Below are positions 8,862 to 28,225 of a stretch of DNA of 64,000 nucleotides, piece after piece. The stretch is from contig JAUIIR010000001.1 in the NCBI GenBank assembly GCA_030431485.1, positions 124,001-188,000 of the forward strand, given 5' to 3'. A program made the translations under genes and the position numbers. A model generated the notes under the pieces. It was given only the letters and a program-made list of their open reading frames with translations. It searched no databases and was not told where the DNA came from. The DNA comes from Alphaproteobacteria bacterium (GTDB lineage Bacteria; Pseudomonadota; Alphaproteobacteria; Rhodobacterales; Rhodobacteraceae). Every line of letters starts with the position of its first letter. Position 1 is the stretch's first letter.

Positions 8862-8872
8862 AGAGCCCAATC

Positions 8873-9577: not shown

Positions 9578-9715
9578 ATCCACCTCCTAGTTTTGATTTT
9601 AGCACATGGTCGGTTGACCAAGCTAGGCTCCACCGGTGTCGTGTTTTCCGGCTGTTTTGCAGTCTTGTTGCGGTCGACTTCAAGACGGCTGGCAGCGTGC
9701 CTGACATCACCAATC

Positions 9716-10690
9716 TCAGTCCGCAGTGGCAGCCGCACGCGGGATTTTTGCGTCAGCGGTTTCAAGTAAGGTTCGCGCCGTAATCTCATCGGTGATCAGG
9801 ACATTGGGCGCAAGCGACATGATGCTGGCTCGCAGGATTTCGATCTTTTCCCGGCCCCCTGACATGAGCACTTTTCTTGGCACACGTTTCAAGCGATCGA
9901 GGGACACCGAGATCGACCGATTGTTGACCGGATGGTCCACGATATTCCCGTCTTTGTCGAGAAAGTGATAGAGAAAATCGCCGACCGCACCCGCCGCGAT
10001 CAGCGATTGACGGTCCGACTCCGTGATGTGACCAGAGCGATAGGACGTGGTCAAAGAGGTGATCCCGCCGCAGGACAGCAAAGCCACATCGCAGGCTTCG
10101 GCGAGTTGGAGGATTTGATCGAGGCCACAGTTTTCGAGCAGCGCGTGCCGTGTTTGCGGCGAATCCACAACTGCCGGCGCCGAGATCAGATAGCCTTCGG
10201 CTTCGAAGAGTTCGGCAAATTGCCACGCAAATTCGGCAGGGTTAAAGCGTCTGGCCTGTGCAATGCCGCCAAGAAGGGACACAACCCGCACGTCCGACAG
10301 GGGCTTTTCCTCGATATAGGGCAACATCGCATGCAGGGTCTTGCCCCAACCGACACCGACGGTCATCCCGTTTTCCATCAGGTTAGAAACATAGGTGCCT
10401 GCCGCCGCAGCGATCACCCGTGTTGGGTCGTCTTCTATGGCTTCCACGGGCGCGACAATGGCCTGTTCGAAATCGTAGTGGTCCTGAAGCTGTTGTTGAA
10501 GCTCGATCAACTCGGTCAATTCCGACTTGATCCGGATCACAACCTCACCACGTTTCTTGGCTTCGGATAACAAACGGGTCACCGTGATCCGGTTCACGCC
10601 AAGCTTTTTCCCGACATCGGATTGGGTCATGCCTTCGATGTAGTAAAGCCATGCGGCGCGGACCCGAAGCTGGTCTTGCGATTTTGCCAT
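9716..10690 (-). CDS. SorC-family sugar-responsive transcriptional regulator
   Basis: The 324-residue protein has an N-terminal helix-turn-helix (residues about 18-50, GMTQSDVGKKLGVNRITVTRLL) and a C-terminal sugar-phosphate-binding domain of the SorC/DeoR(Bacillus) type (about 60-315, with VGVGWGKTLHAML and LLSCGGI). Such proteins usually bind a phosphorylated sugar or polyol intermediate and control the adjacent catabolic operon. It lies 84 bp downstream of the acetoin-dehydrogenase-like genes on the same strand. A near-palindrome related to TGAAC-N4-GTTCA at 10764-10777 lies upstream of it, and perfect copies lie in two promoters of the neighbouring importer units, so it is the prime candidate for their regulator. 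Confidence 0.9.
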   Translation of the reverse strand: MAKSQDQLRVRAAWLYYIEGMTQSDVGKKLGVNRITVTRLLSEAKKRGEVVIRIKSELTELIELQQQLQDHYDFEQAIVAPVEAIEDDPTRVIAAAAGTYVSNLMENGMTVGVGWGKTLHAMLPYIEEKPLSDVRVVSLLGGIAQARRFNPAEFAWQFAELFEAEGYLISAPAVVDSPQTRHALLENCGLDQILQLAEACDVALLSCGGITSLTTSYRSGHITESDRQSLIAAGAVGDFLYHFLDKDGNIVDHPVNNRSISVSLDRLKRVPRKVLMSGGREKIEILRASIMSLAPNVLITDEITARTLLETADAKIPRAAATAD

Positions 10691-10763
10691 CGGATCGCCC
10701 CCTTGTGATCTGTCTTATGTCTTTGGCTTTTGACAGGTAACCGATGTTTTCGGTGGGTGACAA

Positions 10764-10777
10764 TGAACAACTGGTCA
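10764..10777. promoter_or_regulatory. near-palindromic copy of the TGAAC-N4-GTTCA motif
   Basis: TGAAC-AACT-GGTCA differs from the perfect motif at 15537 and 26623 by one base. It lies 74 bp upstream of the SorC-type gene and overlaps the stop codon of the lipoyl-hydrolase gene. It could serve autoregulation, but its position inside a coding end makes this uncertain. Confidence 0.35.
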
Positions 10778-12079
10778 AAGGTTTGACGACAGGATCCGGC
10801 CCAACTCAGCACTGCACTCGATCTGGGGCATGTGCCCAACGCCGTCAAAAAGGTGAAGCGCCATCTTGCCCGGGGCGCGCAGGGCGTGTTTCCAAGGGAT
10901 GATCGCGTCCTGTTTGCCCCATATGATCCGGGTCGGCGTGTCGATCCGTTCTAGTGCCGCGCGTAGGTCAAAAGCCTGAACCCCATCGGGGAAAAGTGCA
11001 TCGGCAAGACGCGACTGCGCCGCGCGCAGGTTCGTGTCTTCCCGCCCCGCCATGGCAAGGCGGACATAGCTGTCGGTCACGATGTCTTCGTTTGCCACAA
11101 GGCTGCGCAGCCACGGACCAAGGCTTTCGGCGCGGGTAGCCCTGCAGATCCCCGACAGCGCATTGCCGTTGATATCCGGGCCAAGCCCCGCAGGTGCGAT
11201 CAGGGTCAGGGACGACAATCGTTTTGCCCGGGTATCGGCCAGTGCAATACTGACGGCACCGCCAAGGCTGTGACCAACCAGATGTGCGGCGTCAAGGTTT
11301 AGATCGTCAAAGGCACGCCGGACCTCGCGGACCAGATCGGCAAAGCTGTCGATGCGCAGTTTTGGTGATTTGCCGTGACCGGGCAGGTCGATCCGGATCA
11401 ATGGGCGGTGCTTCAGATGTGTCTCCATCGGTGACCAGGACGTGGCATCACTGGCAAAGCCGTGGATCATCACGATCGGTGTCCCGGTGCCGCCTTTGGA
11501 GCGGGTCACTGCCAGACTACCGGTTTCCGCTTTGAAGACGAGCGGTGACGCCAGCGGGGCAGGGCGCGTGTCACGCAGAGCGATTTCGGTTTCGACGTCC
11601 AGCGCCTGTACCCGCCCGCGCGGACCGGTGCCGATCAGGTCTGCGATGTTCAGGCCCGCACCGCTTGCCAAGGAGCGTGCGCGCGGGGTGGCGCGGACCT
11701 TGTCCGTAGCTTCCCCAGCAATGGCGTCGACCAGTTCCAATTCGGCCTCGACCGGCACGTCCGCTTCGACTTGTTTCGGCTCGGGTGCAGCCCCAGCTCC
11801 GGCTTGGCCCGCAAACGGCGCGGGTTGTTCGCCTACTTCTTCGCCCTCGGCATAAAGCCAGGCGCAGGGTGTGCCGATTGGGATGTCCATCCCCTCGGAG
11901 GCGGTGTGGTGCAGGATGCCATCGGCAGGCGCCTCGACCTCCATCGCGGCCTTATCTGTTTCGATGTCGAACAGCGGCTCGCCCTTGGACACCCGTTCGC
12001 CTTCGGCGATGTGCCACGACATGATCTTGCCCTTGGCCATGTCCATGTCGACCTTGGGCATGATGACTTCGGTCGGCAT
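10775..12079 (-). CDS. AcoC-like lipoyl-domain/alpha-beta hydrolase fusion (E2 component)
   Basis: The 434-residue protein joins three parts. A lipoyl domain (residues 1-80) carries the lipoylated Lys43 in TDKAAMEVEAP. A peripheral subunit-binding segment lies around 128-165 (ATPRARSLA to GTGPRGRV). An alpha/beta hydrolase domain (about 200-434) has oxyanion HGFASD, nucleophile GHSLGG, acid GKQDAI and His in VGHMPQ. This is the plan of AcoC, the acetyltransferase of acetoin dehydrogenase, and not of pyruvate or branched-chain E2, whose HxxxDG catalytic domain is absent. The start overlaps the E1 beta stop by 4 bp. No E3 gene is nearby, so a general lipoamide dehydrogenase is probably shared. 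Confidence 0.88.
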   Translation of the reverse strand: MPTEVIMPKVDMDMAKGKIMSWHIAEGERVSKGEPLFDIETDKAAMEVEAPADGILHHTASEGMDIPIGTPCAWLYAEGEEVGEQPAPFAGQAGAGAAPEPKQVEADVPVEAELELVDAIAGEATDKVRATPRARSLASGAGLNIADLIGTGPRGRVQALDVETEIALRDTRPAPLASPLVFKAETGSLAVTRSKGGTGTPIVMIHGFASDATSWSPMETHLKHRPLIRIDLPGHGKSPKLRIDSFADLVREVRRAFDDLNLDAAHLVGHSLGGAVSIALADTRAKRLSSLTLIAPAGLGPDINGNALSGICRATRAESLGPWLRSLVANEDIVTDSYVRLAMAGREDTNLRAAQSRLADALFPDGVQAFDLRAALERIDTPTRIIWGKQDAIIPWKHALRAPGKMALHLFDGVGHMPQIECSAELGRILSSNL

Positions 12080-13089
12080 CAGACACGTCCCTTCGCCAGA
12101 TTGCGCGCGGCCTCCAGGATGTCGGGCACCTGTGGAACAACCGCTTTCTCAAGCTCCGGATTATAAGGGATCGGGCATTCGGCCCCTCCCAACCTGATGA
12201 TCGGCGCATCAAGATAGTCGAACGCGTCGCTTTCTGCGACCATCGCCGATACTTCGGCACCCACGCCCAATGTCTTGACCGCCTCGTAGACGCAGACCAG
12301 ACGTCCGGTCTTGCGGACCGAGGTGAGCACCGTGTCGCGGTCCATCGGGCGGATCGTGCGCAGGTCGATCACCTCGGCGTCGATGCCTTCGGCGGCCAAT
12401 GTCTGGGCAGCATCAAGCGCCTTGTGCACCATGATTGACGTGGCAATGATGGTCAGGTCCTTGCCCTCGCGCATCACTGCCGCCTTGCCGATGGGGGTGG
12501 TGTAATAGCCTTCCGGCACATGCCCCTTCATCTTGTAAAGGATCTTGTGCTCGTAGATCATCACCGGATCGGGATCTTCCAGCGCAGCCAGCAATAGACC
12601 CTTGGCATCAGCAGGTGTCGCAGGTTGAACCACCTTCAGACCGGGCACATGCGCGGTCCATGCCTCTAGGCTCTGGCTGTGCTGTGCCGCAGCGCCGGTG
12701 CCGGACCCTGAGGGAAAGCGCATGACCACAGGCACCGACACTGCGCCACCCAGCATGTAACGGATCTTGGCCGCTTGATTGACGATCTGCTCCATCCCGA
12801 GCGTCGCGAAGTCCGAGAACTGGAATTCAAAGATTGGCCTTAGCCCGGTCATCGCGGCACCGACCGCGACGCCAGCGCCGCCCAACTCGGAAATAGGCGT
12901 ATCCATGACACGGTCCGTGCCGTATTTCTCGACCAGTTCGCCAGTGACGCCAAAGGCCCCGCCATAAACTCCGATATCCTCACCCATAAGGATGACGCGT
13001 TCATCGCGGGCCATGGCGATGTCCATGGCTTCGCGGATGGCCTCGGCATAAGACAATTCGCGGAGGTCGGTCTTGCTGTGCATGTTCAT
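12079..13089 (-). CDS. 2-oxoacid/acetoin dehydrogenase-type E1 beta subunit
   Basis: This 336-residue transketolase-like subunit pairs with the E1 alpha protein encoded directly upstream (4-bp ATGA overlap). Typical beta-subunit segments are [15 protein letters not shown] near residue 36, the [22 protein letters not shown] region near 92, and [21 protein letters not shown] near 125. Together the E1 subunits use thiamine diphosphate to cleave or decarboxylate the substrate and transfer the acyl group to the lipoyl arm of the hydrolase fusion. The E2 type next door suggests an acyloin (2-hydroxyketone) substrate rather than a 2-oxoacid. Confidence 0.93.
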
Positions 13090-14102
13090 GATGCGGTCTC
13101 TTCGGTGTAGACGTCGCGTGTGACCTCTTCGATCTTCGGATTGGCCCCCTCGGTTGCAAAAGCGATGGCCTCTTCGATAATCCGGGTCGCGTCGGCTTCG
13201 ATCCCTGCAACCTCGTCCTCGGTGGCGATCTTGTGGTCAGTTAGCAGCTTAGCCATCGCGGCAATCGGGTCGCGGGACTGCCAGTCTGCGATCTCTTCCT
13301 TGGTCCGGTAGCGGTTGCGGTCCGACTTGGAATGCCCGCGCCAGCGGTAAGTAACGTTCTCGACAAGGCTCGGGCCTTCGCCGTTGCGGGCGCGTTCGAC
13401 TGCCGCGTCAACAGCTTCGGTCACGGCGGAAAAATCGTTCCCGTCCACTGTCACGCCCGGCATGGCATAGGCCACCGCCCGGTCCGCGATGTTCTTGACT
13501 GAGGTCGAGCGCTCGGTCGAGGTTGACATGCCGTACTTGTTGTTTTCACAAACAAAAACCACGGGCAGCTTCCAGACCGACGCCATGTTCAGCGCTTCGT
13601 GAAACGCGCCCTCGTTGTTGGCGCCATCCCCAAAGAAACAGACGGTGACAGCGCCGGTGCCCAACCGCTTGGCCGACAAGGCTGCGCCGACCGCAATCGG
13701 CAGACCGCCGCCCACGATACCGTTGGCGCCTAGATTGCCCTTGCTTGGGTCTGCGATATGCATCGACCCGCCGCGCCCTTTGCAATAGCCACTTTCCTTG
13801 CCGAAAAACTCGGCGAACATGCGGGACAGGTCCGCACCTTTGGCGACGCAATGGCCATGACCCCGGTGGGTCGAGGTGATCTTGTCCTCATCACTCAGCG
13901 ACATGCAGGACCCGACTGCTGACGCTTCCTGTCCAATGCTCAGGTGCATCGTGCCGTGGATCAGACCGCGCATGTAGCTGTCTTCCGCGCCTTCCTCGAA
14001 TTTGCGGATCAGGTACATCTTTTTCAGAGCGTCTTTTAGCTCCTCCGCACTGTACCGCGCGATGGCGTAGGGGATGTTATTGGGTGTCACGGTGTCACGC
14101 AT
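13086..14102 (-). CDS. thiamine-diphosphate-dependent dehydrogenase E1 alpha subunit
   Basis: The 338-residue protein carries the thiamine-diphosphate/Mg motif beginning [10 protein letters not shown] and ending in ENN, which is the GDG-X(22-30)-N pattern, with HRGHGH and GGSMH segments before it. The chosen ATG at 14102 has AAGGA 8 bases upstream and overlaps the stop of the oxidoreductase gene by 8 bp; an ATG 6 codons earlier lacks a ribosome site. It is the second gene of a tightly overlapping five-gene unit (SAF oxidoreductase, E1 alpha, E1 beta, E2-hydrolase, SorC regulator). Confidence 0.93.
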
Positions 14103-15426
14103 TGAGAAGGTCCTTCCCATAAAGCATCATGTCCTGGCGGCGGCGCAGCTCGACCAGCCGCGACTGCGGAAGGGTGGCATTGGCCAATGTGATCAGCTCA
14201 CCTTTCTTGATTGGCGCGGTCACTTTGGCTCCGGTCAGCATCCCGGCAGGAAGGGCGCGCGCGGCTTGCGCCCGACCCACTTCCATCGCCCATGCTCGGT
14301 AGGCGTATTCGCCAATCTGGTCGAGAGTATCGCCCGGCTGCAGATCCTTCTTGGCCAAGGCACAGACTTCAACCACCGGCTTTTCCAGTGGGATCATGTC
14401 GGCTTTGCCGTAAAGCACGGAACGCGCGCAGGTCAGCGGCACTTCGAGCGATGTCAGGTGATAGGGGCGAATGAACTCATAGTAGGGCCCGTCGCCCATC
14501 TTGAGGTCTTTCATCCGCTCATGGATGCGCGGATGTTCGGCCTCGACGATGCAGAAAACGCCCGGTGACACGCCCTTGCCGATGGAATAATCCACCTTGC
14601 CGATGCCCGACAGAATGCCGCCGTCCTTTTCCGGGATAAGCACTTTCGCCAGTTCCTTGGGGCCTGCCGCTGGGCCGTGCATGCCGTCCACATCCGGGAT
14701 CAGGCCGGTGGCATTGCCGATGGCGGCCATTTCAACGGCGGTTTTTGATCCGTCCACAAACTCCACCAACAGACGCGGGTTCATGTGGCGTCGGACCGCT
14801 TCTGCCTCGTAGGCGTCCGGTGTAGCGTCGATGTTCAGCGGATTGTTCTTGCCTTTGCCGGCGCAGACCACCTTGTGACCCATGGCGGTCACGAACTCGA
14901 TCAGCTCCATGCAAGAAGACGGCTCGTCGCCTGCGCCCAGCGAATAGACCACGCCCAACCGGTCCGCTTCGTTGCGCAGGTATGCACCAATGGTCACGTC
15001 CGCTTCGACGTTCATCATGGTCAAATGCTTGCCGCGCTCCATTGCCTTTAGGCCAATTTCTGCACCTACCGCGGGAATGCCGGTCGCGTCGATCACTACG
15101 TCGATTAATCCTGATTCGAGGATCAAATCGGCATTGTCCGTTATCGCTGTTTTGCCGGATTCGACGATCGCATTGAGGTCACCTGTCGATTTTGCGTCCT
15201 GGCTATGGCCGTCCTCGCCTGTTGCGATGGACACGGCCTTGTGCGCGTTCGGAACGTTCAGCTCCGAGATCGCCGCCACGTCGACGCCGTCCATCATTGC
15301 GGCGCGCGTGACGATATCTGTCCCCATTTCGCCGGACCCAATCAGTCCGATGCGGACAGGTTTGCCAGATGCGGCTCGCGCGGCGAGGTCTTTCGCCAGT
15401 CCGGTCAATGCGATGTTGGAGGCCAT
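14095..15426 (-). CDS. SAF-domain NAD(P)-binding oxidoreductase, homoserine-dehydrogenase-like (COG4091 type)
   Basis: The 443-residue protein begins with a Rossmann fold (GLIGSGEMGTDI, residues 27-38) and ends with a SAF domain (about 355-430, KKDLQPGDTLDQIG and APIKKGELI). This combination is that of predicted homoserine-dehydrogenase-like proteins of COG4091, whose reactions are largely unassigned. It leads the operon with the acetoin-dehydrogenase-like complex, so it probably oxidises or rearranges the imported substrate to the compound that the complex cleaves. AGGA lies 9 bases before the ATG. Its promoter region is shared with the divergent importer and contains a perfect TGAAC-N4-GTTCA palindrome. 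Confidence 0.8.
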   Translation of the reverse strand: MASNIALTGLAKDLAARAASGKPVRIGLIGSGEMGTDIVTRAAMMDGVDVAAISELNVPNAHKAVSIATGEDGHSQDAKSTGDLNAIVESGKTAITDNADLILESGLIDVVIDATGIPAVGAEIGLKAMERGKHLTMMNVEADVTIGAYLRNEADRLGVVYSLGAGDEPSSCMELIEFVTAMGHKVVCAGKGKNNPLNIDATPDAYEAEAVRRHMNPRLLVEFVDGSKTAVEMAAIGNATGLIPDVDGMHGPAAGPKELAKVLIPEKDGGILSGIGKVDYSIGKGVSPGVFCIVEAEHPRIHERMKDLKMGDGPYYEFIRPYHLTSLEVPLTCARSVLYGKADMIPLEKPVVEVCALAKKDLQPGDTLDQIGEYAYRAWAMEVGRAQAARALPAGMLTGAKVTAPIKKGELITLANATLPQSRLVELRRRQDMMLYGKDLLNA

Positions 15427-15536
15427 ACGAGTTTTTCCTGTCGCTCTTGTTTGAGGCGAATATCCTGAACTTTTGTATGTGCGTCAAGATTAATGTTCAA
15501 AACTTGCAGAAAAGTTCTTGACGTCAGGTGGTATGG

Positions 15537-15550
15537 TGAACAATGGTTCA
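15537..15550. promoter_or_regulatory. palindrome TGAAC-N4-GTTCA in divergent promoter, candidate SorC operator
   Basis: TGAAC and GTTCA flank AATG. The site lies 111 bp before the SAF oxidoreductase start and 94 bp before the binding-protein start, so it could control both directions. Isolated half-sites occur at 15466-15470 (TGAAC) and 15495-15499 (GTTCA). The same palindrome recurs at 26623-26636. Confidence 0.6.
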
Positions 15551-15643
15551 GTTGTGCAGTTACGTGTTCCGGCGACGTGAAGCGGCAGTGGAGGCTGCTT
15601 GAGGCGGAAAATTCGATAATTGTGCCATCAAGGGAGGAAAATG

Positions 15644-17197
15644 ATGGAATTCAGAGGAAGACTATCCAGACGGTCGTTCATGGCGAGCGCATCGGCTATG
15701 GGAATCGCCGCAACCGGCTCGACATGGGGTGGCAAGCTACTTGCGGCCAGCCACTTGCCGGACCCACAAAGCGTGCTCGACGGGATTTCGATCTCCCAGT
15801 ACGTCCGCGCGGATTATCGCGACCTCTATGGCATGTCGGATGACAAGCCGATGTGGGACAGCAACAAAGACTGGATCCGTACCGTCGACTGGGAAAAAGT
15901 TCGGTCCGAACTCGCTGGCACCACTGTGCGCTTTGCGGTTGGCGCGGCTGACGCCGAATCCGCCGCTGAGGGACTTGTCCCGTTCGAGGCGCTCTCCGGC
16001 ATCACGGTTGAGCTTGTTCCGATTCCGGATGACAGCTTCTATGACAAGGCCCTTGCCGAATTCATCTCGGGCAATGCATCCTTCGACGCGTTGCAGTTCT
16101 TCTCGCCCTGGCTGGGTGACTTCGCAGCGCCGGGCTTCCTCTATCCTCTGCAGGAATTTGCAGACAAGTGGAGCCTGCCGCTCGACGATTTCTACGACAC
16201 CTATCGCCTGAACTATGGCTATTTCAACGGCCAGATGTACGGCATCCCGTTCGACTGCGACATTCAGATGGTCCACCTGCGCAAGGGCTATGTTGAGCAG
16301 GTTCTGGGTGGTCCGATTGACAAGGTGAACTCTGTTCCGACCTATGATGAACTGATCCGTCTGTCCGGCGAGTTGAACAAGGTCGAGCCCGGTGTCTCTG
16401 GGGTCGGCCTGATGGCAGCTCCAGGCTTCTGGTCGACCTACACATGGGAGCATGTATCGGCGCAGGCTGGCATGATGCTCTTTGACGAGAATTGGGAACC
16501 AATCTTCAACGGCGATGCCGGTATGAAGGGCCTGGAGATCATTCTCGAACTGTCCAAAAACGCCAACGAGGGCCATGCAGGTGCCGGTTGGCCGGAAAAC
16601 CGTGCCGCATGGCTTGGCGGTCAGGTGGCCACCAATATCAGCTGGCAGGACAGCGGCACGCAGGCGATGCGGCCGGATCAGTCGCAGATCGTCGACGATT
16701 TCGTCACCATCTACGAACCGCGTATCGCAGGCGGCCGGTTCGCGCCGCCGAACATCGCGGGCTCGACCTCGTGTGTCTCGGCCTCTGCACAGAACCCCGA
16801 AGGCGCATTCCTCATGCTTGGCTTCCTGACGACAGCGTCGATCATGGCGATGAATGAAGCGAACGCGAACGGTGTGGCCCCCGGCTACAAGTCAGTTCTG
16901 GAAAACGAGAACCTTCAAGCCGTCTCGCAACCTGCGAAGGTCTGGGGTGACAGCCTGCATCACGCATGGTGCAGCCCGCGTCTGCCTGGTGCGTTCCCGA
17001 TCGAGCAGGCCATCGGCAACGAGATCAACCGCGCTGTGGTCGGTCAGATCACGGCAAAAGAAGCGCTCGACAACGCGGCCGCGGCCGTCAAGCAGATCAT
17101 GTCGTCCAACGGCTTCTATCAGGGCAATGATCCGGTAGAATACGCACAGGCGGCACCCGGTCTCTATGTCGGCGAAGGCAAGGACCTGCCGTTCTAA
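15644..17197 (+). CDS. family 1 extracellular solute-binding protein of a sugar ABC importer
   Basis: The 517-residue protein has a Tat-type signal (SRRSFMAS near residue 8, then a hydrophobic segment ending GGKLLAA), so it is probably exported folded to the periplasm. The mature part resembles UgpB/MalE-like binding proteins, with a DALQFFSPWLGDFA region and an NISWQDSGTQ region. It would capture the sugar or polyol for the two permeases that follow. Two adjacent ATG codons exist (15641, 15644); the second has better spacing to GGAGG. The protein is longer than the usual 410-440 residues, mostly in an N-terminal segment of about 60 residues after the signal. Confidence 0.9.
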   Translation: MEFRGRLSRRSFMASASAMGIAATGSTWGGKLLAASHLPDPQSVLDGISISQYVRADYRDLYGMSDDKPMWDSNKDWIRTVDWEKVRSELAGTTVRFAVGAADAESAAEGLVPFEALSGITVELVPIPDDSFYDKALAEFISGNASFDALQFFSPWLGDFAAPGFLYPLQEFADKWSLPLDDFYDTYRLNYGYFNGQMYGIPFDCDIQMVHLRKGYVEQVLGGPIDKVNSVPTYDELIRLSGELNKVEPGVSGVGLMAAPGFWSTYTWEHVSAQAGMMLFDENWEPIFNGDAGMKGLEIILELSKNANEGHAGAGWPENRAAWLGGQVATNISWQDSGTQAMRPDQSQIVDDFVTIYEPRIAGGRFAPPNIAGSTSCVSASAQNPEGAFLMLGFLTTASIMAMNEANANGVAPGYKSVLENENLQAVSQPAKVWGDSLHHAWCSPRLPGAFPIEQAIGNEINRAVVGQITAKEALDNAAAAVKQIMSSNGFYQGNDPVEYAQAAPGLYVGEGKDLPF

Positions 17198-17239
17198 AGG
17201 CCTAGGCCATCACGCAAACTGGACAGGAACGAGATTGTC

Positions 17240-18184: not shown

Positions 18185-18186
18185 GC

Positions 18187-19032: not shown

Positions 19033-19035
19033 AAA

Positions 19036-20085
19036 ATGGCAAGAATCCAACTGAATAATATCCAGAAACGCTGGGGCGCGGTCTGGGGTGTGCGTGACGT
19101 GAATCTCGACATCGCGGACGAGGAGTTCGTCGTCTTCCTTGGCCCATCGGGCTGCGGAAAGACCACCACCATGCGTATGATTGCGGGCCTAGAAGACCCA
19201 ACCGAAGGCGAGATTGTTATGGATGGCGAGGTGATGAACGACATCGACGCCCGTGACCGTGACGTGGCGATGGTGTTCCAAGGCTACGCGCTCTATCCCA
19301 ACATGACGATCTATGAAAACATCCGCTTTCCTCTGCGGATGCGTGGTGTTCCGAAAGAGCAGCAGGATGGCCTGATCCGCCGCGCAGCCGGGCTGGTGGA
19401 ACTGGAAGACTACCTTGACCGCAAACCCGGCGCCTTGTCGGGCGGCCAGCGTCAACGGGCGGCTCTGGCCCGCGCCATCGTGCGGCAGCCCCATGTCTTT
19501 CTGATGGACGAGCCGCTGTCGAACCTCGACGCCAAGCTGCGCCAGCACATGCGGGTACAGATCAAGCATATCCAGCGCGAGTTGAAGATCACCACTGTCT
19601 ACGTGACCCATGACCAGATCGAGGCGATGACACTCGCCGACCGGATCGTCATCATGGACAAAGGAGCCATCCAGCAGATCGGCACGCCGGATGAGATCTA
19701 CAACGATCCGGCCAACACCTTTGTCGCCAATTTCATCGGTGCGCCGCCCATGAATCTGATATCAGGCACGATGGAGCAGGGCGTTTTCACCGCGCCGGGT
19801 GTCCGCGTTGATGGCTTGCCCGCAAAACATGATGGCAAGATAACGCTGGGTGTGCGCCCCGAGGATTGCACAGTCACCGCCGATGCAGGCCATTTGCAAG
19901 GTACTGTTTACGGGGTGGAGCCCACTGGTGACATGACGTATCTGACACTCAAGGCGGGCGACAAACTGATAGAGGTGAAGGCGCATCGCGACTATCGCGC
20001 GGACTTGAATTCCGACGCGACTGTTGGCTTTGATCCCAAGCGGATTTACCTCTTCGACAGCAACTCCGGGCAACGCCTGCGCTGA
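19036..20085 (+). CDS. sugar ABC transporter ATPase, MalK/UgpC type
   Basis: The 349-residue protein has Walker A GPSGCGKTTT (residues 36-45), Q-loop MVFQGYALYP, signature LSGGQRQR near 134, Walker B VFLMDEPLSNLD near 155 and the switch His in YVTHDQ. The C-terminal 110 residues form the TOBE-type regulatory domain typical of MalK/UgpC ATPases. It energises the two permeases encoded just upstream. Confidence 0.95.
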   Translation: MARIQLNNIQKRWGAVWGVRDVNLDIADEEFVVFLGPSGCGKTTTMRMIAGLEDPTEGEIVMDGEVMNDIDARDRDVAMVFQGYALYPNMTIYENIRFPLRMRGVPKEQQDGLIRRAAGLVELEDYLDRKPGALSGGQRQRAALARAIVRQPHVFLMDEPLSNLDAKLRQHMRVQIKHIQRELKITTVYVTHDQIEAMTLADRIVIMDKGAIQQIGTPDEIYNDPANTFVANFIGAPPMNLISGTMEQGVFTAPGVRVDGLPAKHDGKITLGVRPEDCTVTADAGHLQGTVYGVEPTGDMTYLTLKAGDKLIEVKAHRDYRADLNSDATVGFDPKRIYLFDSNSGQRLR

Positions 20086-20110
20086 CACCGCACAGCATGG
20101 AGACCAAGCC

Positions 20111-21055
20111 ATGACCTTTGACTATACCTCTATGGGGTTCCACACCTTTGATGCGCTCTGCCGACCGGTGACGGAAATTCCTCCCGGCGGGAACACATTC
20201 TTCGTCGACGAATTTACGCTGGCTGTGTCCGGTGCGGCCGGCTCGGCCGCCATCGTGGCTGCCAAGCACGGTCTTTCGGTGCAGGCCGTGGGTGGTGTCG
20301 GCAATGACCTGATGGGCGATTGGGTGCTCCGCCGCTTTGGCGATTTCGGCGTCGATACCGAAATGATGCAGCGCATCCCCGACATGACGACGTCGTCCAG
20401 TGTCGTCACCACCCGGCCCGACGGCGCGCGCCCGGCGTTGCACAAGCGCGGAGCGACGGCGGGGTTCTACATCACCGATGACATGGTCGACCGGGTGCTC
20501 GACACCAAGATATTCCATGTCGGCGGCGTCGGCCTGATGAACGCGATGGACAAAGGCCGCAATGCCGAACTTCTGGCGGAGGCAAAGACCCGCGGGATCA
20601 CCACCACGCTCGACGTCTTCGCGTCCACGCCTGACGACTTGCCGCTGATCCGCCCGCTGCTATCGCATACAGATTACTTCATGCCCTCCGAGGAAGAGGC
20701 AATGGCGCTGTCGGGCATGACCGACTACGAAGAAATCGCGTCTTTCCTTCTCGATCAAGGCGTCGGTGCGGTGATCCTGACACTTGGCGCTGATGGCGCC
20801 ATGTACCGCGATCAGGCAGGCAAGAAGATCGACATCCCGTCCTACAAGATCGACGTGGTTTGCACCTGTGGCTGTGGCGATTGCTTCAACGCGGGCTTTG
20901 CCACCGGGCTGCACCTGGGCCGATCCATCGAAGACTGTATCCGCTTTGGACAGGCATCCTCGGCGCAGAATGCGATGGGGTTGGGCTCGCAGGCGGTTGT
21001 GTCGTCGCTTGAAAACACAATCACTTTCATGGAGACCACGCCGACCCGCGCGTGA
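20111..21055 (+). CDS. PfkB-family carbohydrate kinase
   Basis: The 314-residue cytoplasmic kinase has the N-terminal glycine-rich pattern of the ribokinase/PfkB family (SGAAGSAAIVAAKHG, VGGVGNDLMGDWV) and the C-terminal signature near residue 258. There the usual GAGD anion-hole motif reads GCGD in CTCGCGDCFNAGFATG, with the catalytic Asp kept and three Cys in the motif. It would phosphorylate the imported sugar or derivative, giving the phosphate ester that a SorC regulator could sense. The ATG at 20111 is chosen because it follows the ATPase by 25 bp and matches the family start. Confidence 0.9.
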   Translation: MTFDYTSMGFHTFDALCRPVTEIPPGGNTFFVDEFTLAVSGAAGSAAIVAAKHGLSVQAVGGVGNDLMGDWVLRRFGDFGVDTEMMQRIPDMTTSSSVVTTRPDGARPALHKRGATAGFYITDDMVDRVLDTKIFHVGGVGLMNAMDKGRNAELLAEAKTRGITTTLDVFASTPDDLPLIRPLLSHTDYFMPSEEEAMALSGMTDYEEIASFLLDQGVGAVILTLGADGAMYRDQAGKKIDIPSYKIDVVCTCGCGDCFNAGFATGLHLGRSIEDCIRFGQASSAQNAMGLGSQAVVSSLENTITFMETTPTRA

Positions 21056-21088
21056 TCCCACCTGAAACATCAACGCGAAAGCTTTTAT

Positions 21089-21778: not shown

Positions 21779-21791
21779 TCAGAACCCAAAA

Positions 21792-21823
21792 ACGCGAGGC
21801 CCATCCGGCCCCGCGTCTTTTTT
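21792..21823 (+). terminator. intrinsic terminator after the importer-kinase-HAD operon
   Basis: ACGCGAGGCC pairs with GGCCCCGCGT with one mismatch and is followed by six T. It starts 13 bp after the HAD gene stop. The convergent minus-strand permease ends at 21840. Confidence 0.85.
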
Positions 21824-21839
21824 ACCATTTGGTCAAATT

Positions 21840-22817
21840 TCAGCGGCTGGGCTTTTTGCCGAAGGCCACCGCAAGAACAATAATCGCACCCGCCACCATC
21901 ATCTGCTCGGACACGTCCAGTCCCATGATGATCAGACCGTTGTTGATCGTTCCGATCAGCAGGGCGCCAACGAAAGTTCCGATGATCGTACCCTTACCTC
22001 CAAACAGGCTTGTGCCCCCAAGGATCACCGCCGCGATCGCGGCCAGTTCCGCGCCTTCACCGAAATTGTAGCGCGCGGTTCCCATCATCCCGGTCCAGAG
22101 CATCCCGGCCAAAGCCGCGCCGACACCGGTGATCAGGAAGCAGATGATTTTCACACGCTTGGTGTTGATGCCGGAATAGCGCGCCGCTTCGCGGTTGCCG
22201 CCGGTGGCCAGAACTTGCCGACCGAAGGGTGTGTAGCGCAGCACCACATGGCCGAGGATTGCCACGGCAACAGCCCAAAGGAACAGGGTGGGGACCACAC
22301 CGATCGTTCCGGGGCCGAACACCGTGTCGAAGGTCTCGTTCCGCACGGGGACTGGGTTTGTGTAGGTGATCCGCATGTCGATGCCGCGCACCAGCTGCAT
22401 CATGCCCAGCGTCACAAGGAAAGACGGGATCGACAGGGCGGTCACGAAGAACCCGTTGACCAGACCGACCGCCACGCCGCACAGCAAACCTGCGATTACG
22501 CCTCCGACAAACCCGTATCCCGCCTGTATCGCCAGCGCCGACACAAGCGCCGCCAGCGCGGCTGTCGACCCGACGGACAGGTCCAGTTCGCCCGACGAAA
22601 TGATGAAGGTCATGGCAATCGAGATCACCGCGATCATTGCTGTGGTCCGGGCGATGTTGAACAGGTTTGACACCGTCAGAAAGCCCTTGTCGCCAATGGT
22701 GATGGCAAAGAAAAGAAGCACACCGGCAAAGCAGATGTACACGATGTTTTCGCGCCAGTTGATCCGTCCAAAGGTGAACGAACGGTCCTGGGGCATGGGG
22801 TCAGCCTTGGACTGCAT
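21840..22817 (-). CDS. ribose-type ABC transporter permease (RbsC family)
   Basis: The 325-residue protein has eight to ten hydrophobic segments and typical RbsC-family stretches: SGELDLSVGSTAALAALV near residue 75, IPSFLVTLGMMQLVRGI near 128, and AAVILGGTSLFGGKGTIIGTFVGALL near 265. It probably forms a homodimeric inner-membrane channel. The ATG at 22817 has GAGGAGG 9 bases upstream and overlaps the end of the ATPase gene by 17 bp, which implies coupling. Confidence 0.94.
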   Translation of the reverse strand: MQSKADPMPQDRSFTFGRINWRENIVYICFAGVLLFFAITIGDKGFLTVSNLFNIARTTAMIAVISIAMTFIISSGELDLSVGSTAALAALVSALAIQAGYGFVGGVIAGLLCGVAVGLVNGFFVTALSIPSFLVTLGMMQLVRGIDMRITYTNPVPVRNETFDTVFGPGTIGVVPTLFLWAVAVAILGHVVLRYTPFGRQVLATGGNREAARYSGINTKRVKIICFLITGVGAALAGMLWTGMMGTARYNFGEGAELAAIAAVILGGTSLFGGKGTIIGTFVGALLIGTINNGLIIMGLDVSEQMMVAGAIIVLAVAFGKKPSR

Positions 22818-24294
22818 GGTGCAGAGCCTCCTCAGATTGCACGTCTTTGCGGTTCATGTTCCCGATCACGCTGCCATCGTATATGATCAGCAGCCGGTCG
22901 CTGATCGCGAGCAGCTCTTCGAACTCGGACGAGATGACGACAACCGCCGTGCCCGCATCCGCAATCTCGCGTACTTTGCGCACCAGTTCCGATTTCGCGC
23001 CGATATCGACACCGATGGTCGGCTCATCAAGGATCAGGACTTTGGGTTTGCGCTCCAGCCACTTGGCGAGAACGATCTTTTGCTGATTGCCGCCGGACAG
23101 AAGGTAGACCTCTTGTTCCGGGCCTTCGCACTTGATCTTGAGGTCCGCGATATGCCGGTCGGATGCCGCGCGCGCGGTCGTGTCCCCGACAAACAGGTTG
23201 CGCGTGAAGCGGGCAAGGTTCGGCAGGATCACGTTGTCCCGAAGGCTGTGATCCAGAATTAGGCCCTGTGTCCGGCGGTCCTCGGGCACCAGCCCGACGC
23301 CTGCCTCAATGGCATCGCGATTACTGCGCACGGAATGGCCATCAATCCGGACAGACCCGCCGTCAATCTGGCGAATGCCGAAAATGGCCTCGACAATCTC
23401 GGTGCGGCCCGAACCGGTGAGTCCGGCAAGTCCAAGGATCTCGCCGGGGCGGACATCAAAGCTCACATCGTCCACATATCCGTTCACCCGCAGGTTCTCG
23501 ACCTCGAGAACAGGGGCGGCGGTCATGTCCACATCGCGTGGGATCCAGTCCATCGCGGCGGTTCTGTCTGATCCCAGCATGGCGCGGATCAGTTCTTCCA
23601 TCGTTACGTCGCTGGTGTCAGCCGTCAGCATGTCGCGCCCGTCGCGCATCGCGGTGATGCGGTCGCAGATCTGGTAAATCTCGGCCATGCGGTGCGAAAT
23701 GTAGACGATTGAAATGCCTTGCTTTTTCAACTGGTTCACCAGTCGGAATAGGGTCTCGACCTCGCTTTCGGACAGCGATGCGGTGGGTTCGTCCATCACG
23801 ATGATCCGTGCATTCTTGGACAGCGCTTTGGCGATCTCGACCATCTGTTTCGCCCCAACGCTCAGGTCTTCGACACGGGTGCGTGGGTCAATGTTTTCGC
23901 CGAACTCCCGAAGGATCTCGTGGGCGCGGCGGATCATCTCGGCATCGCGGATGAAGATTTTGTTGCCGCGCTTCGGCTCGTGCCCCAGAAAGATGTTCTG
24001 GGCAACGGTTAGCGTCGGGATCAGGCTGAATTCCTGAAAGATCATCGCGATCCCGGCGGCTTCTGCATCGCGGGGTGCAGCAAAGCTGACATCCGTCCCG
24101 TCGATCTGAACGGTGCCGGCATCCCGTTGATAGACGCCTGTCAGGATCTTCATGAGGGTGGACTTGCCCGCGCCGTTTTCGCCCATCAGCGCATGGCATT
24201 CGCCCTTGCGAAGAGTGAACCCGGCATGGCGCAGCACGGGGTTCCCGTTAAACGCCTTGTCGATGTCCCGCATGATCAAAACATCTGTCGTCAT
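22801..24294 (-). CDS. ribose-type ABC transporter ATPase with two nucleotide-binding domains (RbsA family)
   Basis: The 497-residue protein has two ATPase halves. The first has Walker A GENGAGKST, signature LSVGAKQMVEIA and Walker B IIVMDEPTASL. The second has a degenerate Walker A (GLTGSGRTE), LSGGNQQKIVLAKWL and VLILDEPTIGVD. This tandem layout is that of RbsA/MglA. The ATG at 24294 has GAGGAG upstream; the open frame extends 19 codons further but would run into the hairpin before the gene. Confidence 0.95.
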   Translation of the reverse strand: MTTDVLIMRDIDKAFNGNPVLRHAGFTLRKGECHALMGENGAGKSTLMKILTGVYQRDAGTVQIDGTDVSFAAPRDAEAAGIAMIFQEFSLIPTLTVAQNIFLGHEPKRGNKIFIRDAEMIRRAHEILREFGENIDPRTRVEDLSVGAKQMVEIAKALSKNARIIVMDEPTASLSESEVETLFRLVNQLKKQGISIVYISHRMAEIYQICDRITAMRDGRDMLTADTSDVTMEELIRAMLGSDRTAAMDWIPRDVDMTAAPVLEVENLRVNGYVDDVSFDVRPGEILGLAGLTGSGRTEIVEAIFGIRQIDGGSVRIDGHSVRSNRDAIEAGVGLVPEDRRTQGLILDHSLRDNVILPNLARFTRNLFVGDTTARAASDRHIADLKIKCEGPEQEVYLLSGGNQQKIVLAKWLERKPKVLILDEPTIGVDIGAKSELVRKVREIADAGTAVVVISSEFEELLAISDRLLIIYDGSVIGNMNRKDVQSEEALHHAVQG

Positions 24295-24318
24295 GTCGTG
24301 CTTCTCCTCACGAACAAA

Positions 24319-24348
24319 CCGTACGCCACGGGGAGGCGTGGCGTACGG
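24319..24348 (-). terminator. perfect 12-bp stem-loop between binding-protein and ATPase genes
   Basis: CCGTACGCCACG and CGTGGCGTACGG flank a 6-base loop, 9 bp after the binding-protein stop and 25 bp before the ATPase start. There is no T-tract. Such hairpins after binding-protein genes often act as mRNA stabilisers or partial terminators, giving more binding protein than membrane components. That role is inferred. Confidence 0.6.
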
Positions 24349-24357
24349 CAAGCTGCA

Positions 24358-25539
24358 TCAGTTGCTGGCCAGATCGGCTTGCATCGTTTCCGGCAGCTGG
24401 ATGCGGTAGATCTTCTCATACGCCTCGGCGAGGTTGTCGCGGCTCACGCGCACCGGCGGCACCGAGATGTAGGAGGGCAGGCTTTCACCGATCAGCGCCA
24501 GCGCACCGGCGCTCGCTTCGGTCACACCCTGAGTGTAGGGCTGTTGCGTCGAGATACCGGCGATAAAGCTGTTGGCAGCCATCTCCGCGGCGACGATCTG
24601 ATCGAAGTTCTCGTTTACGATCTTGAAGTCCGACGGACGCTTGCCGTTGATGCGGGCAGCGGTCGCAGCACCCATCGCCGGGATCGACCAGGAGCCATAG
24701 ACACCCTTGAGCGTCGGGTAACGGGCGAGCAGGGCCTGCGCCACTTCCTGACCCTTGTTCGGGTTGTCGTGACCGGCCGCCGCGACCAGTTGCAGGTCGG
24801 GATACTTGGCGATCATGCGGGCTATGAAGCCGATGTAGCGCAGGTTGGTCACGTGGAAGTCGTTGGCGTAATACATCGCCGCGACATCGCCTTCGCCGCC
24901 GACTGCGTCGTTCAACAGGTCAGCCAGATACATCCCAAGCGCAAGGTTGTCGGACGAAATCACCGAAACGTAATCCTCACCGGGCTGCATGCCGTCGGCG
25001 GCCTGGTCGATGAACACGATCTGTGAACCGGCATCGGCAAGGCGCTGGAACGCAGAAGCGGTGGTTGCAGTGTTGAGCGGGATGGACACGACCAGATCGG
25101 GCTTCAGAACCGAAATTGCGTCAAGGTCGGAAATCTGGCGTGCGTCTTCCCAGTTCGCGTTGGTTTCGGCGACCACTTCGATGCCGAGGTCTGCAAAGGT
25201 TTCCTTGAGGCCCAGAAGCTGCTGAGAGGCCCAGTCGTCACCCAGCCAACCCATTGAGATCGCTGCAGTAAAGTTGCCAGCGCGGATTTTCTCTTTTTGC
25301 TCTTCGGTGATCTGGATTTCGGTGTAGAGCACACCTTCCTCACCGCGTGGCCCAAGGCTGACAACAGTTTCCGACAGGTCGTCGATCTTGGCCAGTTCCA
25401 GCGTTCGTTCTGTCGGCGCCTTGTACCAGAGCGGGTGCCGGACGTCGCCGATATTGTCCTGCGCAAAGGCGGGCAGGGAGAGGCCAAGGATTGCAGCGGT
25501 TGCGCCAGTGGCCATGAGGGTTCTACGGGTCAACTTCAT
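24358..25539 (-). CDS. periplasmic sugar-binding protein of a ribose-type ABC importer
   Basis: The 393-residue protein has a signal sequence (KLTRRTLMATGATAAILGLSLPAFA, residues 2-26 in part; twin Arg suggests Tat or Sec) and a substrate-binding body of the RbsB class. FTAAISMGWLGDDWASQQ lies near residue 90, SIPLNTATTASAFQRLADAGSQIVFID near 155 and the GVYGSWSIPAMGAATAAR hinge near 285. The mature protein is larger than RbsB (about 270 residues), so the ligand may be larger or modified. It lies in one operon with the hydrolase upstream and the ATPase and permease downstream. Confidence 0.92.
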   Translation of the reverse strand: MKLTRRTLMATGATAAILGLSLPAFAQDNIGDVRHPLWYKAPTERTLELAKIDDLSETVVSLGPRGEEGVLYTEIQITEEQKEKIRAGNFTAAISMGWLGDDWASQQLLGLKETFADLGIEVVAETNANWEDARQISDLDAISVLKPDLVVSIPLNTATTASAFQRLADAGSQIVFIDQAADGMQPGEDYVSVISSDNLALGMYLADLLNDAVGGEGDVAAMYYANDFHVTNLRYIGFIARMIAKYPDLQLVAAAGHDNPNKGQEVAQALLARYPTLKGVYGSWSIPAMGAATAARINGKRPSDFKIVNENFDQIVAAEMAANSFIAGISTQQPYTQGVTEASAGALALIGESLPSYISVPPVRVSRDNLAEAYEKIYRIQLPETMQADLASN

Positions 25540-25590
25540 TTGGTTCTCCTCCGATGGAAGTTTTCGCGTTTTGGGGGTTGCGACCGCAGA

Positions 25591-26502
25591 TCAGCGGTCG
25601 AGCATGAATTCCTTGAGCATCGTCGCAAGGCGATCCTGAGCTTCGAGGGCAAGCGAGTGCCCGCATTCCTCGAAGACGGCGGCTTTCTCGACGCCGTTGG
25701 ACAGCCGCGCCATCTGTTCCTCGACCAGCGGGCCGAAGAATTCCGGCGCACCGACGGTCATGATGGGCAGGGTGAGTTTCTCGTTGCGCAACTCGCGCAC
25801 GATCTCCGCGTTCTTGAAGGCGGCGCGATAGGTTTCGAGCGTGCCTCGCAGACCACCCGGTGCCTTGAGGCAGGCGACCCATTCATTCATCGCCTCCTCG
25901 CTGATGGCGTTGGGGTTCCACGTCTCGGCCTTGATCCAGAACTCCCAGAACTCGCGTTCCTTGCCGTTGATCAGCATCTCCGGCAGGTGAGGGATCCAGA
26001 AGAACGGGATGTGCCAGACCCAGACGCCGCTCTGGCGGAATTGCGATGTGATGTTGTCGGGGGTGAAAAACGATGCCTCTTCAAGGCCTTCGCTCGACAG
26101 CAGCATTTCGCAGAACGACAGCGTCTTGACCCTATCGCGCTCGGTTGCCGCCAGCACATAGGCGAATTCCGCGCCACGATCTTCGCCATGCACATGGAAC
26201 GTGTCGTGGCCCAGGAAGGTCATCAGCTCTGCCAGGTCCTGCGCATTGGTGCGGCTGTCATAGCCATCGCTGACTGGCGGTTTGTCGGTGTAGCCAAAGC
26301 CGCGCAGGTCGGGGGCGACCACGGTGAAATGTTCGGTCAACAGCGGGATCAGCTTGTGCCAGTAGTAGTTGGTCTTGGGTGTGCCATGGACCAGCAGCAG
26401 CGGTTCACCCTGACCGGCTGTCACATAGTGCATCCGGATGCCGTTCACGCGGGCACGCCCATGCTTCACCGGTGCGCCTGTATGATCGAAAATCTCGGCC
26501 AT
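25591..26502 (-). CDS. alpha/beta hydrolase of the dehalogenase/epoxide hydrolase type
   Basis: The 303-residue enzyme has oxyanion motif HGTPKT (residue 39), the elbow HGEDRGAEFA with nucleophile Asp108, DLRGFGYTDKP near 65 and His in ECGHSL near 285. An Asp in place of Ser at the elbow is the mark of haloacetate/haloalkane dehalogenases and epoxide hydrolases, and GEDRG closely resembles the GHDRG of fluoroacetate dehalogenase. The ATG at 26502 has GGGAGGG just upstream; the 45 codons of open frame before it are promoter sequence. It is the first gene of an operon with a sugar-type importer, which is unusual. The reaction remains inferred. Confidence 0.82.
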   Translation of the reverse strand: MAEIFDHTGAPVKHGRARVNGIRMHYVTAGQGEPLLLVHGTPKTNYYWHKLIPLLTEHFTVVAPDLRGFGYTDKPPVSDGYDSRTNAQDLAELMTFLGHDTFHVHGEDRGAEFAYVLAATERDRVKTLSFCEMLLSSEGLEEASFFTPDNITSQFRQSGVWVWHIPFFWIPHLPEMLINGKEREFWEFWIKAETWNPNAISEEAMNEWVACLKAPGGLRGTLETYRAAFKNAEIVRELRNEKLTLPIMTVGAPEFFGPLVEEQMARLSNGVEKAAVFEECGHSLALEAQDRLATMLKEFMLDR

Positions 26503-26622
26503 TTTTCCCTCCCTAAAGGTCTCTTTGACCACGCTCTTCGCGGTGTTTGGTCTGTCTGTTTGCTGCGGGTCAGAACGGTTTCGGGTGCGTCCCTCACACG
26601 GCCTGAACTTGCGCCATCTTTC

Positions 26623-26636
26623 TGAACTATTGTTCA
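26623..26636. promoter_or_regulatory. second perfect TGAAC-N4-GTTCA palindrome
   Basis: TGAAC and GTTCA flank TATT, 120 bp upstream of the hydrolase start. It has the same half-sites and spacing as the palindrome at 15537-15550, which argues for one regulator over both importer operons. Confidence 0.55.
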
Positions 26637-27696: not shown

Positions 27697-27759
27697 CCTT
27701 TCACACGCAGACCAGACCTTGGTCGCATGTCTTTTTCGAAGCCATAGACTAAATTAAAA

Positions 27760-27775
27760 ATTTCGTATACGAAAT
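27760..27775. promoter_or_regulatory. perfect 16-bp palindrome, candidate GntR operator
   Basis: ATTTCGTATACGAAAT lies between the divergent gntR and RHH genes, 42 bp before the latter's start and 64 bp before gntR. Size, symmetry and central GTATAC fit operators of FCD-type GntR regulators, so it is a likely autoregulatory and divergent control site. Confidence 0.65.
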
Positions 27776-27816
27776 ACGTGTTGAATGCTTACGCATGATT
27801 TTTGGGAGGATGAACC

Positions 27817-28110: not shown

Positions 28111-28138
28111 CTTTGTCCCTCTGAGCGCCAGAAAAAAT

Positions 28139-28165: not shown

Positions 28166-28225
28166 ACCCCCCATAGGCCGGACTAGCCTGCGAACGGACA
28201 CAGAAACCAACCGCAGGAGTCACCC

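What the first reader, a model, noticed from the sequence alone, without database searches (positions are those of the whole stretch)
9716..26636. One 14-bp palindrome links three catabolic transcription units
TGAAC-N4-GTTCA occurs perfectly at 15537-15550 (shared promoter of the SAF-oxidoreductase/acetoin-like complex and the first importer) and at 26623-26636 (upstream of the hydrolase/second importer). A one-mismatch copy at 10764-10777 lies upstream of the SorC-type regulator. The sites sit in the expected promoter gaps with identical half-sites and spacing. This points to a single regulon in which two importers and three enzyme sets act together.
Basis: partly seen in the sequence, partly recalled or inferred. 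Interest (0 to 1): 0.72.

Follow-up and report, generated by a model that had tools for sequence, protein, structure and literature searches.

The report
Sugar-phosphate regulon with repurposed isoprenoid enzyme
The repeated DNA palindrome is probably a binding site for a SorC-family switch that controls two sugar-type importers and a set of enzymes that may run an early isoprenoid-building step backwards to feed on a five-carbon sugar alcohol, which would explain why some bacteria keep a second, seemingly redundant enzyme for that step.

Summary
Two of the three are well supported as operators of the SorC-family regulator: a weight matrix learned from other lineages, close relatives left out, ranks 26623 first and 15537 second of all positions in 64 kb; 10764 ranks 16th and is weak. 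Across relatives the operator is often two imperfect palindromes 20 bp apart around the -35 hexamer, like the Bacillus DeoR operator; the window has one at the enzyme promoter. The 'SAF oxidoreductase' is a type II DXP reductoisomerase (DXR-II; 10 of 10 key residues checked). The host also has DXR-I. In the family sample all 16 DXR-II genomes with full-length DXR-I have DXR-II beside E1/E2 genes; of 6 without DXR-I, 5 have only DXR-II outside such a cluster. Of 50 other cluster genomes 5 lack DXR-I, and 4 of these (two lineages) have a second DXR-II beside dxs. I infer a catabolic route: polyol kinase to MEP, DXR-II backwards to DXP, E1/E2 to acetyl-CoA plus glyceraldehyde-3-phosphate. Substrate, direction and binding are untested.

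The parts
9716..10690 (-). SorC/DeoR-family regulator (PF04198 effector domain, HTH)
   Evidence: Pfam 193.7 bits against cut-off 27; best solved relative is Bacillus DeoR 8r7y, E 4e-41
10764..10777 (+). weak, possible autoregulatory site, one mismatch, overlapping the E2 stop codon
   Evidence: 6.5 bits, rank 16 in the window; site at this place mainly in the nearest relatives
10775..12079 (-). E2 dihydrolipoyl acyltransferase of acetoin-dehydrogenase type (lipoyl, E3-binding, alpha/beta-hydrolase domains)
   Evidence: NF011457 358.7 bits against cut-off 307; Pfam domains
12079..13089 (-). E1 beta, thiamine-diphosphate dehydrogenase
   Evidence: NF006667 406.8 bits against cut-off 321
13086..14120 (-). 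E1 alpha, thiamine-diphosphate dehydrogenase
   Evidence: PF00676; TIGR03182 386.7 bits, just under its cut-off of 393.85
14095..15426 (-). DXR-II (DRL), type II DXP reductoisomerase
   Evidence: PF21135; aligned over residues 1-435 to 3upl, E 3e-186; 65% identity over 418 columns, 10 of 10 key residues checked
15458..15499 (-). bipartite SorC operator with embedded predicted promoter of the DXR-II operon: TGAAC half-site starting at 15499, TTGACG (-35) 15487-15482, GTTCA half-site ending at 15466, GATATT (-10) 15464-15459
   Evidence: pair with 20-bp spacing, architecture shared with relatives; promoter scan 1 found against 0.5 in shuffles
15537..15550 (.). perfect palindromic operator on the importer-1 side of the divergent promoter
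   Evidence: rank 2 of all window positions under a matrix from other lineages
15641..17197 (+). importer 1 solute-binding protein (ORF opens at 15620)
   Evidence: PF01547
17240..18184 (+). importer 1 permease
   Evidence: PF00528
17896..19032 (+). importer 1 second permease (real start probably later)
   Evidence: PF00528 at residues 190-371
19036..20085 (+). importer 1 ATPase, UgpC/MalK type
   Evidence: NF008653 430.3 bits, just under its cut-off of 432
20024..21055 (+). PfkB-family sugar kinase (real start probably later)
   Evidence: PF00294
21089..21778 (+). HAD-family phosphatase
   Evidence: PF00702 / PF13419
21840..22817 (-). importer 2 permease (ribose/arabinose type)
   Evidence: PF02653
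22801..24351 (-). importer 2 double ATPase
   Evidence: PF00005, two stretches
24358..25539 (-). importer 2 periplasmic sugar-binding protein
   Evidence: PF13407
25591..26502 (-). alpha/beta hydrolase
   Evidence: PF00561; DXR-II is present in 5 of the 7 genomes that have it, P 1e-5
26623..26636 (.). perfect palindromic operator of the hydrolase/importer-2 operon, over a predicted -10
   Evidence: rank 1 of all window positions; promoter scan TTGACA-16-AACAAT on the minus strand, 2 promoter-like hits in the region against 0.7 in shuffles
27013..27696 (-). GntR (FCD) regulator next to the hydrolase promoter, a rival regulator of that operon
   Evidence: PF07729, PF00392

Best explanation
The palindromes are operators of the SorC/DeoR-type regulator at 9716-10690, probably a repressor released by a phosphorylated C5 intermediate. 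A dimer would bind each TGAAC-N4-GTTCA-like site. At the DXR-II promoter two sites 20 bp apart flank the -35 hexamer, so a tetramer there would block RNA polymerase. The window also has strong single palindromes at the importer-1 promoter and the hydrolase/importer-2 promoter. The regulon takes in a 2-C-methylerythritol-like C5 polyol, or a conjugate cleaved by the hydrolase. The PfkB kinase would make MEP, DXR-II would run in the oxidative direction (MEP to DXP), and the acetoin-dehydrogenase-like E1/E2 complex would split DXP to acetyl-CoA and glyceraldehyde-3-phosphate, with a housekeeping E3. Shown by computation: operator conservation and architecture; DXR-II identity by key residues; clustered DXR-II found mostly in genomes that have another DXR. 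Inferred: binding by this SorC, direction of catalysis, substrate, inducer.
For: Operator: rank 1 of 13,312 de novo palindromes, 25 of 48 regions with <=1 mismatch, mean over hypotheses 0.39. Cross-validated matrix: 102 held-out sites >=8 bits in 45 regions against 5.35 in shuffles; spacing of 20 bp seen 44 times against 0.05. Embedded -35 in the consensus. Window sites rank 1 and 2 with a matrix that excludes close relatives. The DeoR operator has the same half-site, and its base-contacting R34 and R39 align with arginines here (PMC11229326 passages; numbering offset inferred). Pathway: 10 of 10 key DXR-II residues checked; DXR-I in the host. Family sample: 16 of 16 genomes with full-length DXR-I have clustered DXR-II; 5 of 6 without DXR-I have only non-cluster copies and the sixth has both. 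In 50 other cluster genomes a second DXR-II in 4 of 5 without DXR-I against 0 of 45 with it, Fisher P 2e-5. Those four copies sit about 300 bp before dxs and group with the solved Brucella enzyme. Mutant PDH E1 leads to DXP in vivo (PMC3424233 passages).
Against: No binding, activity or growth data. The exact 14-mer occurs in 10 of 80 loci. A SAF-side pair at 19-21 bp passes threshold in 42 of 71 regions and an importer-side pair in 26 of 52. In ten Rhizobiaceae-type loci the SBP1/SorC promoters hold 7 sites >=8 bits against 1.15 in shuffles, most of them weak. 4 of 11 hydrolase promoters have no significant site. The E1 subunits match pyruvate dehydrogenase models and structures; no acetoin-specific E1 model was hit. 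Three of the four genomes with a second DXR-II are close kin (their dxs are 96-100% alike), so these are two lineages and the P value overstates the evidence. dxs was seen beside 5 of 12 non-cluster copies, not all. G817, a MAG, has clustered DXR-II but neither DXR-I nor a second DXR-II.
Confidence: 0.65

Rival explanations
1. The two operons share a SorC-family motif but are run by different regulators: the window's SorC for the enzyme/importer-1 promoter, and a paralogous SorC or the adjacent GntR for the hydrolase/importer-2 operon.
For: Two more SorC-family genes lie on the same contig. A GntR gene lies just upstream of the hydrolase. Three relatives read (G163, G320, G165) carry a SorC of 38-40% identity near the hydrolase operon.
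Against: A matrix learned from the enzyme/importer-1 promoters alone scores the hydrolase site highest in the window. The stretch with the other two SorC genes, C135:44000-63000, holds no site with <=1 mismatch. No GntR motif search was made.
Confidence: 0.2
2. The cluster degrades another deoxy- or branched sugar (for example AI-2/DPD phosphate, or 1-deoxyxylulose entering as DXP); DXR-II acts there on a related substrate.
For: The SorC relative LsrR and Lsr importers serve AI-2 (recalled). Two stretches read carry two permease genes of that importer class near a SorC (L137 of G165; L131 of the own genome). The kinase matches no substrate-specific model at its cut-off.
Against: DXR-II is present in 73 of 80 SorC loci and the window's copy keeps all 10 key residues checked. 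1-Deoxyxylulose alone would not need DXR-II. Non-cluster copies from genomes without DXR-I nest inside the clustered clade, so the clustered enzyme probably handles MEP/DXP.
Confidence: 0.3
3. Clustered DXR-II is a biosynthetic backup or booster of isoprenoid synthesis, and the importer salvages methylerythritol to MEP for isoprenoids.
For: DXR-II is known as an MEP-producing enzyme (PMC3847144 abstract). G817 has the clustered copy as its only DXR found.
Against: Salvage would not need DXR-II or E1/E2. Genomes that lack DXR-I have a non-cluster DXR-II in 6 of 6 of the family sample (one, G227, with context cut at a contig end) and 4 of 5 of the others. Linkage is to importers and a thiamine dehydrogenase.
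Confidence: 0.1
4. The palindromes are chance matches in A/T-rich promoters.
For: The loose motif is not enriched in the window. The third-ranked matrix hit in the window, 32236, lies in an ORF.
Against: Conservation and specificity.
Confidence: 0.04

Closest known systems
Bacillus subtilis DeoR (SorC/DeoR subfamily) and its 39-bp dra-nupC-pdp operator
   Same: Regulator family; TTGAAC-type half-site; two operator halves; overlap with the promoter (PMC11229326 passages)
   Different: Sites 20 bp apart here (22 in DeoR by my count); strong single palindromes at two promoters; other target genes; the effector-binding lysine that I recall for DeoR aligns with leucine here
DXR-II / DRL (solved chain 3upl)
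   Same: 65% identity over 418 columns, all 10 residues checked conserved
   Different: Here in an import/catabolic cluster in a genome that has DXR-I; the solved enzyme groups with the dxs-linked copies
Acetoin dehydrogenase complex (AcoABC)
   Same: E2 with alpha/beta-hydrolase domain above the curated cut-off; separate E1 alpha and beta
   Different: Linked to kinase, DXR-II and sugar importers; no E3 among the cluster proteins scanned; substrate proposed is DXP, not acetoin
LsrR-LsrACDB AI-2 system (pathway recalled; LsrR as solved relative)
   Same: SorC-family regulator, ribose-type importer, kinase, acetyl-CoA-forming cleavage of a phosphorylated C5 compound
   Different: PfkB kinase, DXR-II and a thiamine/lipoyl complex instead of LsrK, LsrG and LsrF

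Membership tests
SorC/DeoR transcriptional regulators | PF04198 effector domain with N-terminal HTH | tested here: met
   193.7 bits against 27, HTH_23 27.3 against 24.6
SorC/DeoR transcriptional regulators | TTGAAC-type operator with two dimer sites | tested here: met
   Comparative operator, spacing 20 bp; in the window met at the DXR-II promoter only, single sites at the other two promoters
SorC/DeoR transcriptional regulators | DNA binding and release by a phosphorylated sugar | not testable with these tools
   No bench data
DXR-II | Functional and family-specific residues G121, E174, F178, K191, K193, T229, H250, R320, Y322, V351 | tested here: met
   10 of 10, residues from PMC3847144 section 6
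DXR-II | MEP/DXP activity | not testable with these tools
   Indirect: non-cluster copies nested in the clustered clade come from genomes without DXR-I
Acetoin dehydrogenase complex | E2 of AcoC type | tested here: met
   NF011457 358.7 bits against 307
Acetoin dehydrogenase complex | E1 specific for acetoin | tested here: inconclusive
   E1 subunits match pyruvate dehydrogenase models and structures; no acetoin-specific E1 model was hit

The most novel reading that the evidence does not exclude
DXR-II is at root a catabolic enzyme in Alphaproteobacteria: it runs the MEP-pathway step backwards so that cells can eat 2-C-methylerythritol (a terpenoid-pathway or isoprene-derived polyol) via DXP to acetyl-CoA and glyceraldehyde-3-phosphate. 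The biosynthetic use of DXR-II is a side use, taken up more than once after loss of DXR-I.
Probability: 0.4. Interest if true: 0.82.

Novelty: new variant of a known kind. Interest (0 to 1): 0.64.

Why it matters
A 2013 family study asks how DXR-II arose in strains that already have DXR-I (PMC3847144 section 9). [quoted passage not shown] The genomic partition found here offers such a pattern and a testable reason: clustered DXR-II serves a SorC-controlled catabolic route, stand-alone DXR-II serves isoprenoid synthesis. It also gives comparative support, from 42 of 71 promoters examined, to a two-site operator like that proposed from the DeoR structures. I saw no description of such a route in the listings; these cover open-licence PMC papers only, and the longer lists were capped (20 of 66, 20 of 312, 15 of 58 shown).

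Tried and rejected
The third site (10764) as a firm regulon member: left as unproven. The pair of matrix hits at 32236 (rank 3 in the window) and 32275: inside a hypothetical ORF, treated as chance. A strict 14-mer as the whole operator: rejected in favour of an often bipartite element. A class-wide sample for DXR-II was thin, 3 of 385 genomes, the own one included; the two others (G580, G584) were placed in the tree, but their DXR-I was not tested. Listeria DXR-II context: only a literature search, no answer. Solved relatives of SBP1, SBP3 and the kinase gave no substrate. No structure prediction was run.

Rows dropped: tree used 67 of 95 DXR-II rows (clustered rows over 90% alike removed; L098, a short locus, removed before). 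One search used 48 of 52 divergent regions. One search used 45 non-redundant regions, window included. One search trained on 45 after leaving out 6 close relatives. Hydrolase promoters: 11 read; L129 is cut and the own copy (L123) was not counted. Fisher P 5e-5 for the family sample left out G227, G162 and G157. Relatedness is not corrected for in any P value. G227's first DXR-II copy is cut by a contig end, so its downstream context is unknown. Thresholds for calling a neighbour present are in the scripts.
Full report
What was checked. The palindrome TGAAC-N4-GTTCA is exact at 15537 and 26623 and has one mismatch at 10764. Counting alone does not make it special: matches with up to two mismatches are at chance level (20 against 22.9 in shuffles). 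The genome has 9 exact copies against 3 for the reversed control. The case rests on conservation.

Conservation. A search with the SorC protein gave 80 loci in named genomes (89 found, best 80 kept). In 73 of 80 the locus also holds the DXR-II gene at 60% identity or more. Three of the other seven still show E1/E2 genes beside SorC, and four (L081, L083, L085, L088) do not. The usual order is DXR-II, E1 alpha, E1 beta, E2, SorC, divergent from importer 1 and the PfkB kinase. In 48 non-redundant divergent promoters I scored every 5-base half-site with every spacer from 0 to 12. TGAAC with spacer 4 came first of 13,312, present with at most one mismatch in 25 of 48 regions; the mean over all hypotheses is 0.39.

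Operator architecture. A symmetric weight matrix, tested on loci it was not trained on, finds 102 sites at 8 bits or more in 45 regions against 5.35 in shuffles. The distance between sites is 20 bp in 44 cases against 0.05 expected. The consensus on the DXR-II side, from 37 loci with exactly 20-bp spacing, reads TGAACA-tatGtaTTGACa-a--aACaaAaGTTCA, with the -35 hexamer between the two outer half-sites. In the window this element lies at 15458-15499 on the minus strand, with TTGACG and GATATT as a 17-bp-spaced promoter-like pair (the promoter scan itself is barely above shuffles). A pair at 19-21 bp passes threshold in 42 of 71 DXR-II promoters, and an importer-side pair in 26 of 52, so the pattern is common but not universal. 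In ten loci with SorC beside importer 1 (Rhizobium, Sinorhizobium, Ensifer, Agrobacterium) that were not used for training, the SBP1/SorC promoters hold 7 sites of 8 bits or more against 1.15 in shuffles, while their DXR-II promoters each hold at least one site above 10 bits. The DeoR operator has the same half-site and two halves (PMC11229326, passages). Two arginines that contact bases in DeoR (R34 and R39 in that paper) align with arginines in the window protein (the numbering offset is my inference).

Do the promoters belong together? I retrained the matrix on 45 loci, leaving out the window's close relatives. Of all positions in 64 kb, 26623 ranks 1 (19.8 bits), 15537 ranks 2 (15.7), 32236 (inside an ORF) ranks 3 (11.5), 15466 ranks 4 (10.5) and 10764 ranks 16 (6.5). 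The refined pattern TGAAC-N-WW-N-GTTCA has exact copies in the genome only at 15537 and 26623. Of 11 orthologous hydrolase promoters, 6 have a site with shuffle p of 0.01 or less, one has p 0.04 and four have none; one of these four (L126) has an 18.3-bit site just before the apparent head of its operon. The hydrolase occurs in 7 of 394 family genomes and DXR-II in 24; 5 genomes have both, P 1e-5, and the two exceptions are 79% and 70% complete. Before SorC, 10 of 80 regions reach 6 bits, five of them the nearest relatives at the same place, so autoregulation is possible but unproven.

What the regulon does. The SAF oxidoreductase aligns over residues 1-435 with the solved DXR-II chain 3upl, at 65% identity over 418 columns, with 10 of 10 functional or family-specific residues checked (residues from PMC3847144 section 6). 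The host also has DXR-I, 402 bits against a cut-off of 316. In the family sample 24 of 394 genomes have DXR-II. Sixteen have full-length DXR-I, and in all sixteen DXR-II sits with E1/E2 genes; so it does in one with a partial and one with a fragmented DXR-I. Six have no DXR-I although 96-98% complete: five have only a DXR-II outside such a cluster, and G227 has one clustered copy and one at a contig end (for the window's own genome and for G010, G034, G163, G165 and G320 the cluster was read). I then tested 50 further genomes that have the cluster: 45 have DXR-I (one of them partial) and 5 do not. The prediction that these five need another DXR-II held in four of five, against 0 of 45 of the others at more than 40% identity; five of the 45 have a distant homologue at 34-37% (Fisher P 2e-5). 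Three of these four genomes are close kin, so the four stand for two lineages. The exception, G817, is a MAG. All four second copies lie about 300 bp before dxs, and a fifth non-cluster copy (G014) lies beside it in divergent orientation; the other 7 of 12 non-cluster copies showed no dxs in the stretch read. Two of the dxs genes were confirmed by TIGR00204. The solved enzyme groups with the four dxs-linked copies, support 0.966. Five other non-cluster copies nest inside the clustered clade, and the tree needs 5 label changes, so clustered enzymes were probably re-used for biosynthesis more than once; the root is not certain and some branches are long or weakly supported.

Mechanism proposed. 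PfkB kinase, DXR-II, and an acetoin-dehydrogenase-type E2 (358.7 bits against 307) with E1 subunits fit one line: 2-C-methylerythritol to MEP, MEP to DXP, DXP to acetyl-CoA plus glyceraldehyde-3-phosphate. Acetoin cleavage and DXP cleavage share the hydroxyethyl-thiamine intermediate (established chemistry, recalled), and mutant pyruvate dehydrogenase E1 leads to DXP in vivo (PMC3424233 passages). The E1 subunits match pyruvate dehydrogenase models and structures, and no acetoin-specific E1 model was hit. The substrate is the least certain step. SorC-family effectors are often phosphosugars (dR5P for DeoR), so MEP or DXP is the expected inducer (inference).

Limits. No binding or enzyme data. 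Genomes named G are unnamed species representatives and some are incomplete. Literature searches cover open-licence PMC papers only; I saw passages of PMC11229326, PMC3424233 and PMC13001223, the abstract, passages and sections 6 and 9 of PMC3847144, and listings of the rest.

Noticed in passing
L131 (own genome C135:44000-63000): A second SorC-linked system outside the window: ribose-type importer with two permeases, Dak1-domain kinase, SorC paralogue (29%), xylose-isomerase-like TIM barrel, E1 alpha, E1 beta, E2. It suggests a wider theme of SorC control over acetoin-dehydrogenase-like complexes.
   Followed up: partly
window 8244-9583 (-): Two small proteins without a Pfam family next to SorC; relatives of the 208-aa one recur near the cluster in several genera.
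   Followed up: no
window 27013-31680: GntR regulator divergent from a Tat-signal protein, a GMC oxidoreductase and a class II aldolase-like gene, next to the hydrolase operon.
   Followed up: no
window 32236-32288: Two matrix hits 39 bp apart (11.5 and 8.2 bits, ranks 3 and 5 in the window) inside a hypothetical ORF; probably chance.
   Followed up: partly
window 33498-35453 (+): Autotransporter with a GDSL-lipase passenger.
   Followed up: no
G320 C11:174059-174247: A short DXR-I-like stretch (39.6 bits) near the SorC paralogue of the related cluster in G320, whose contig length equals that of the Maliponia locus L013.
   Followed up: no
L185 (G227 second DXR-II): Clustered DXR-II on a long branch (1.05) in a genome without DXR-I; possibly decaying or mis-assembled.
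   Followed up: no
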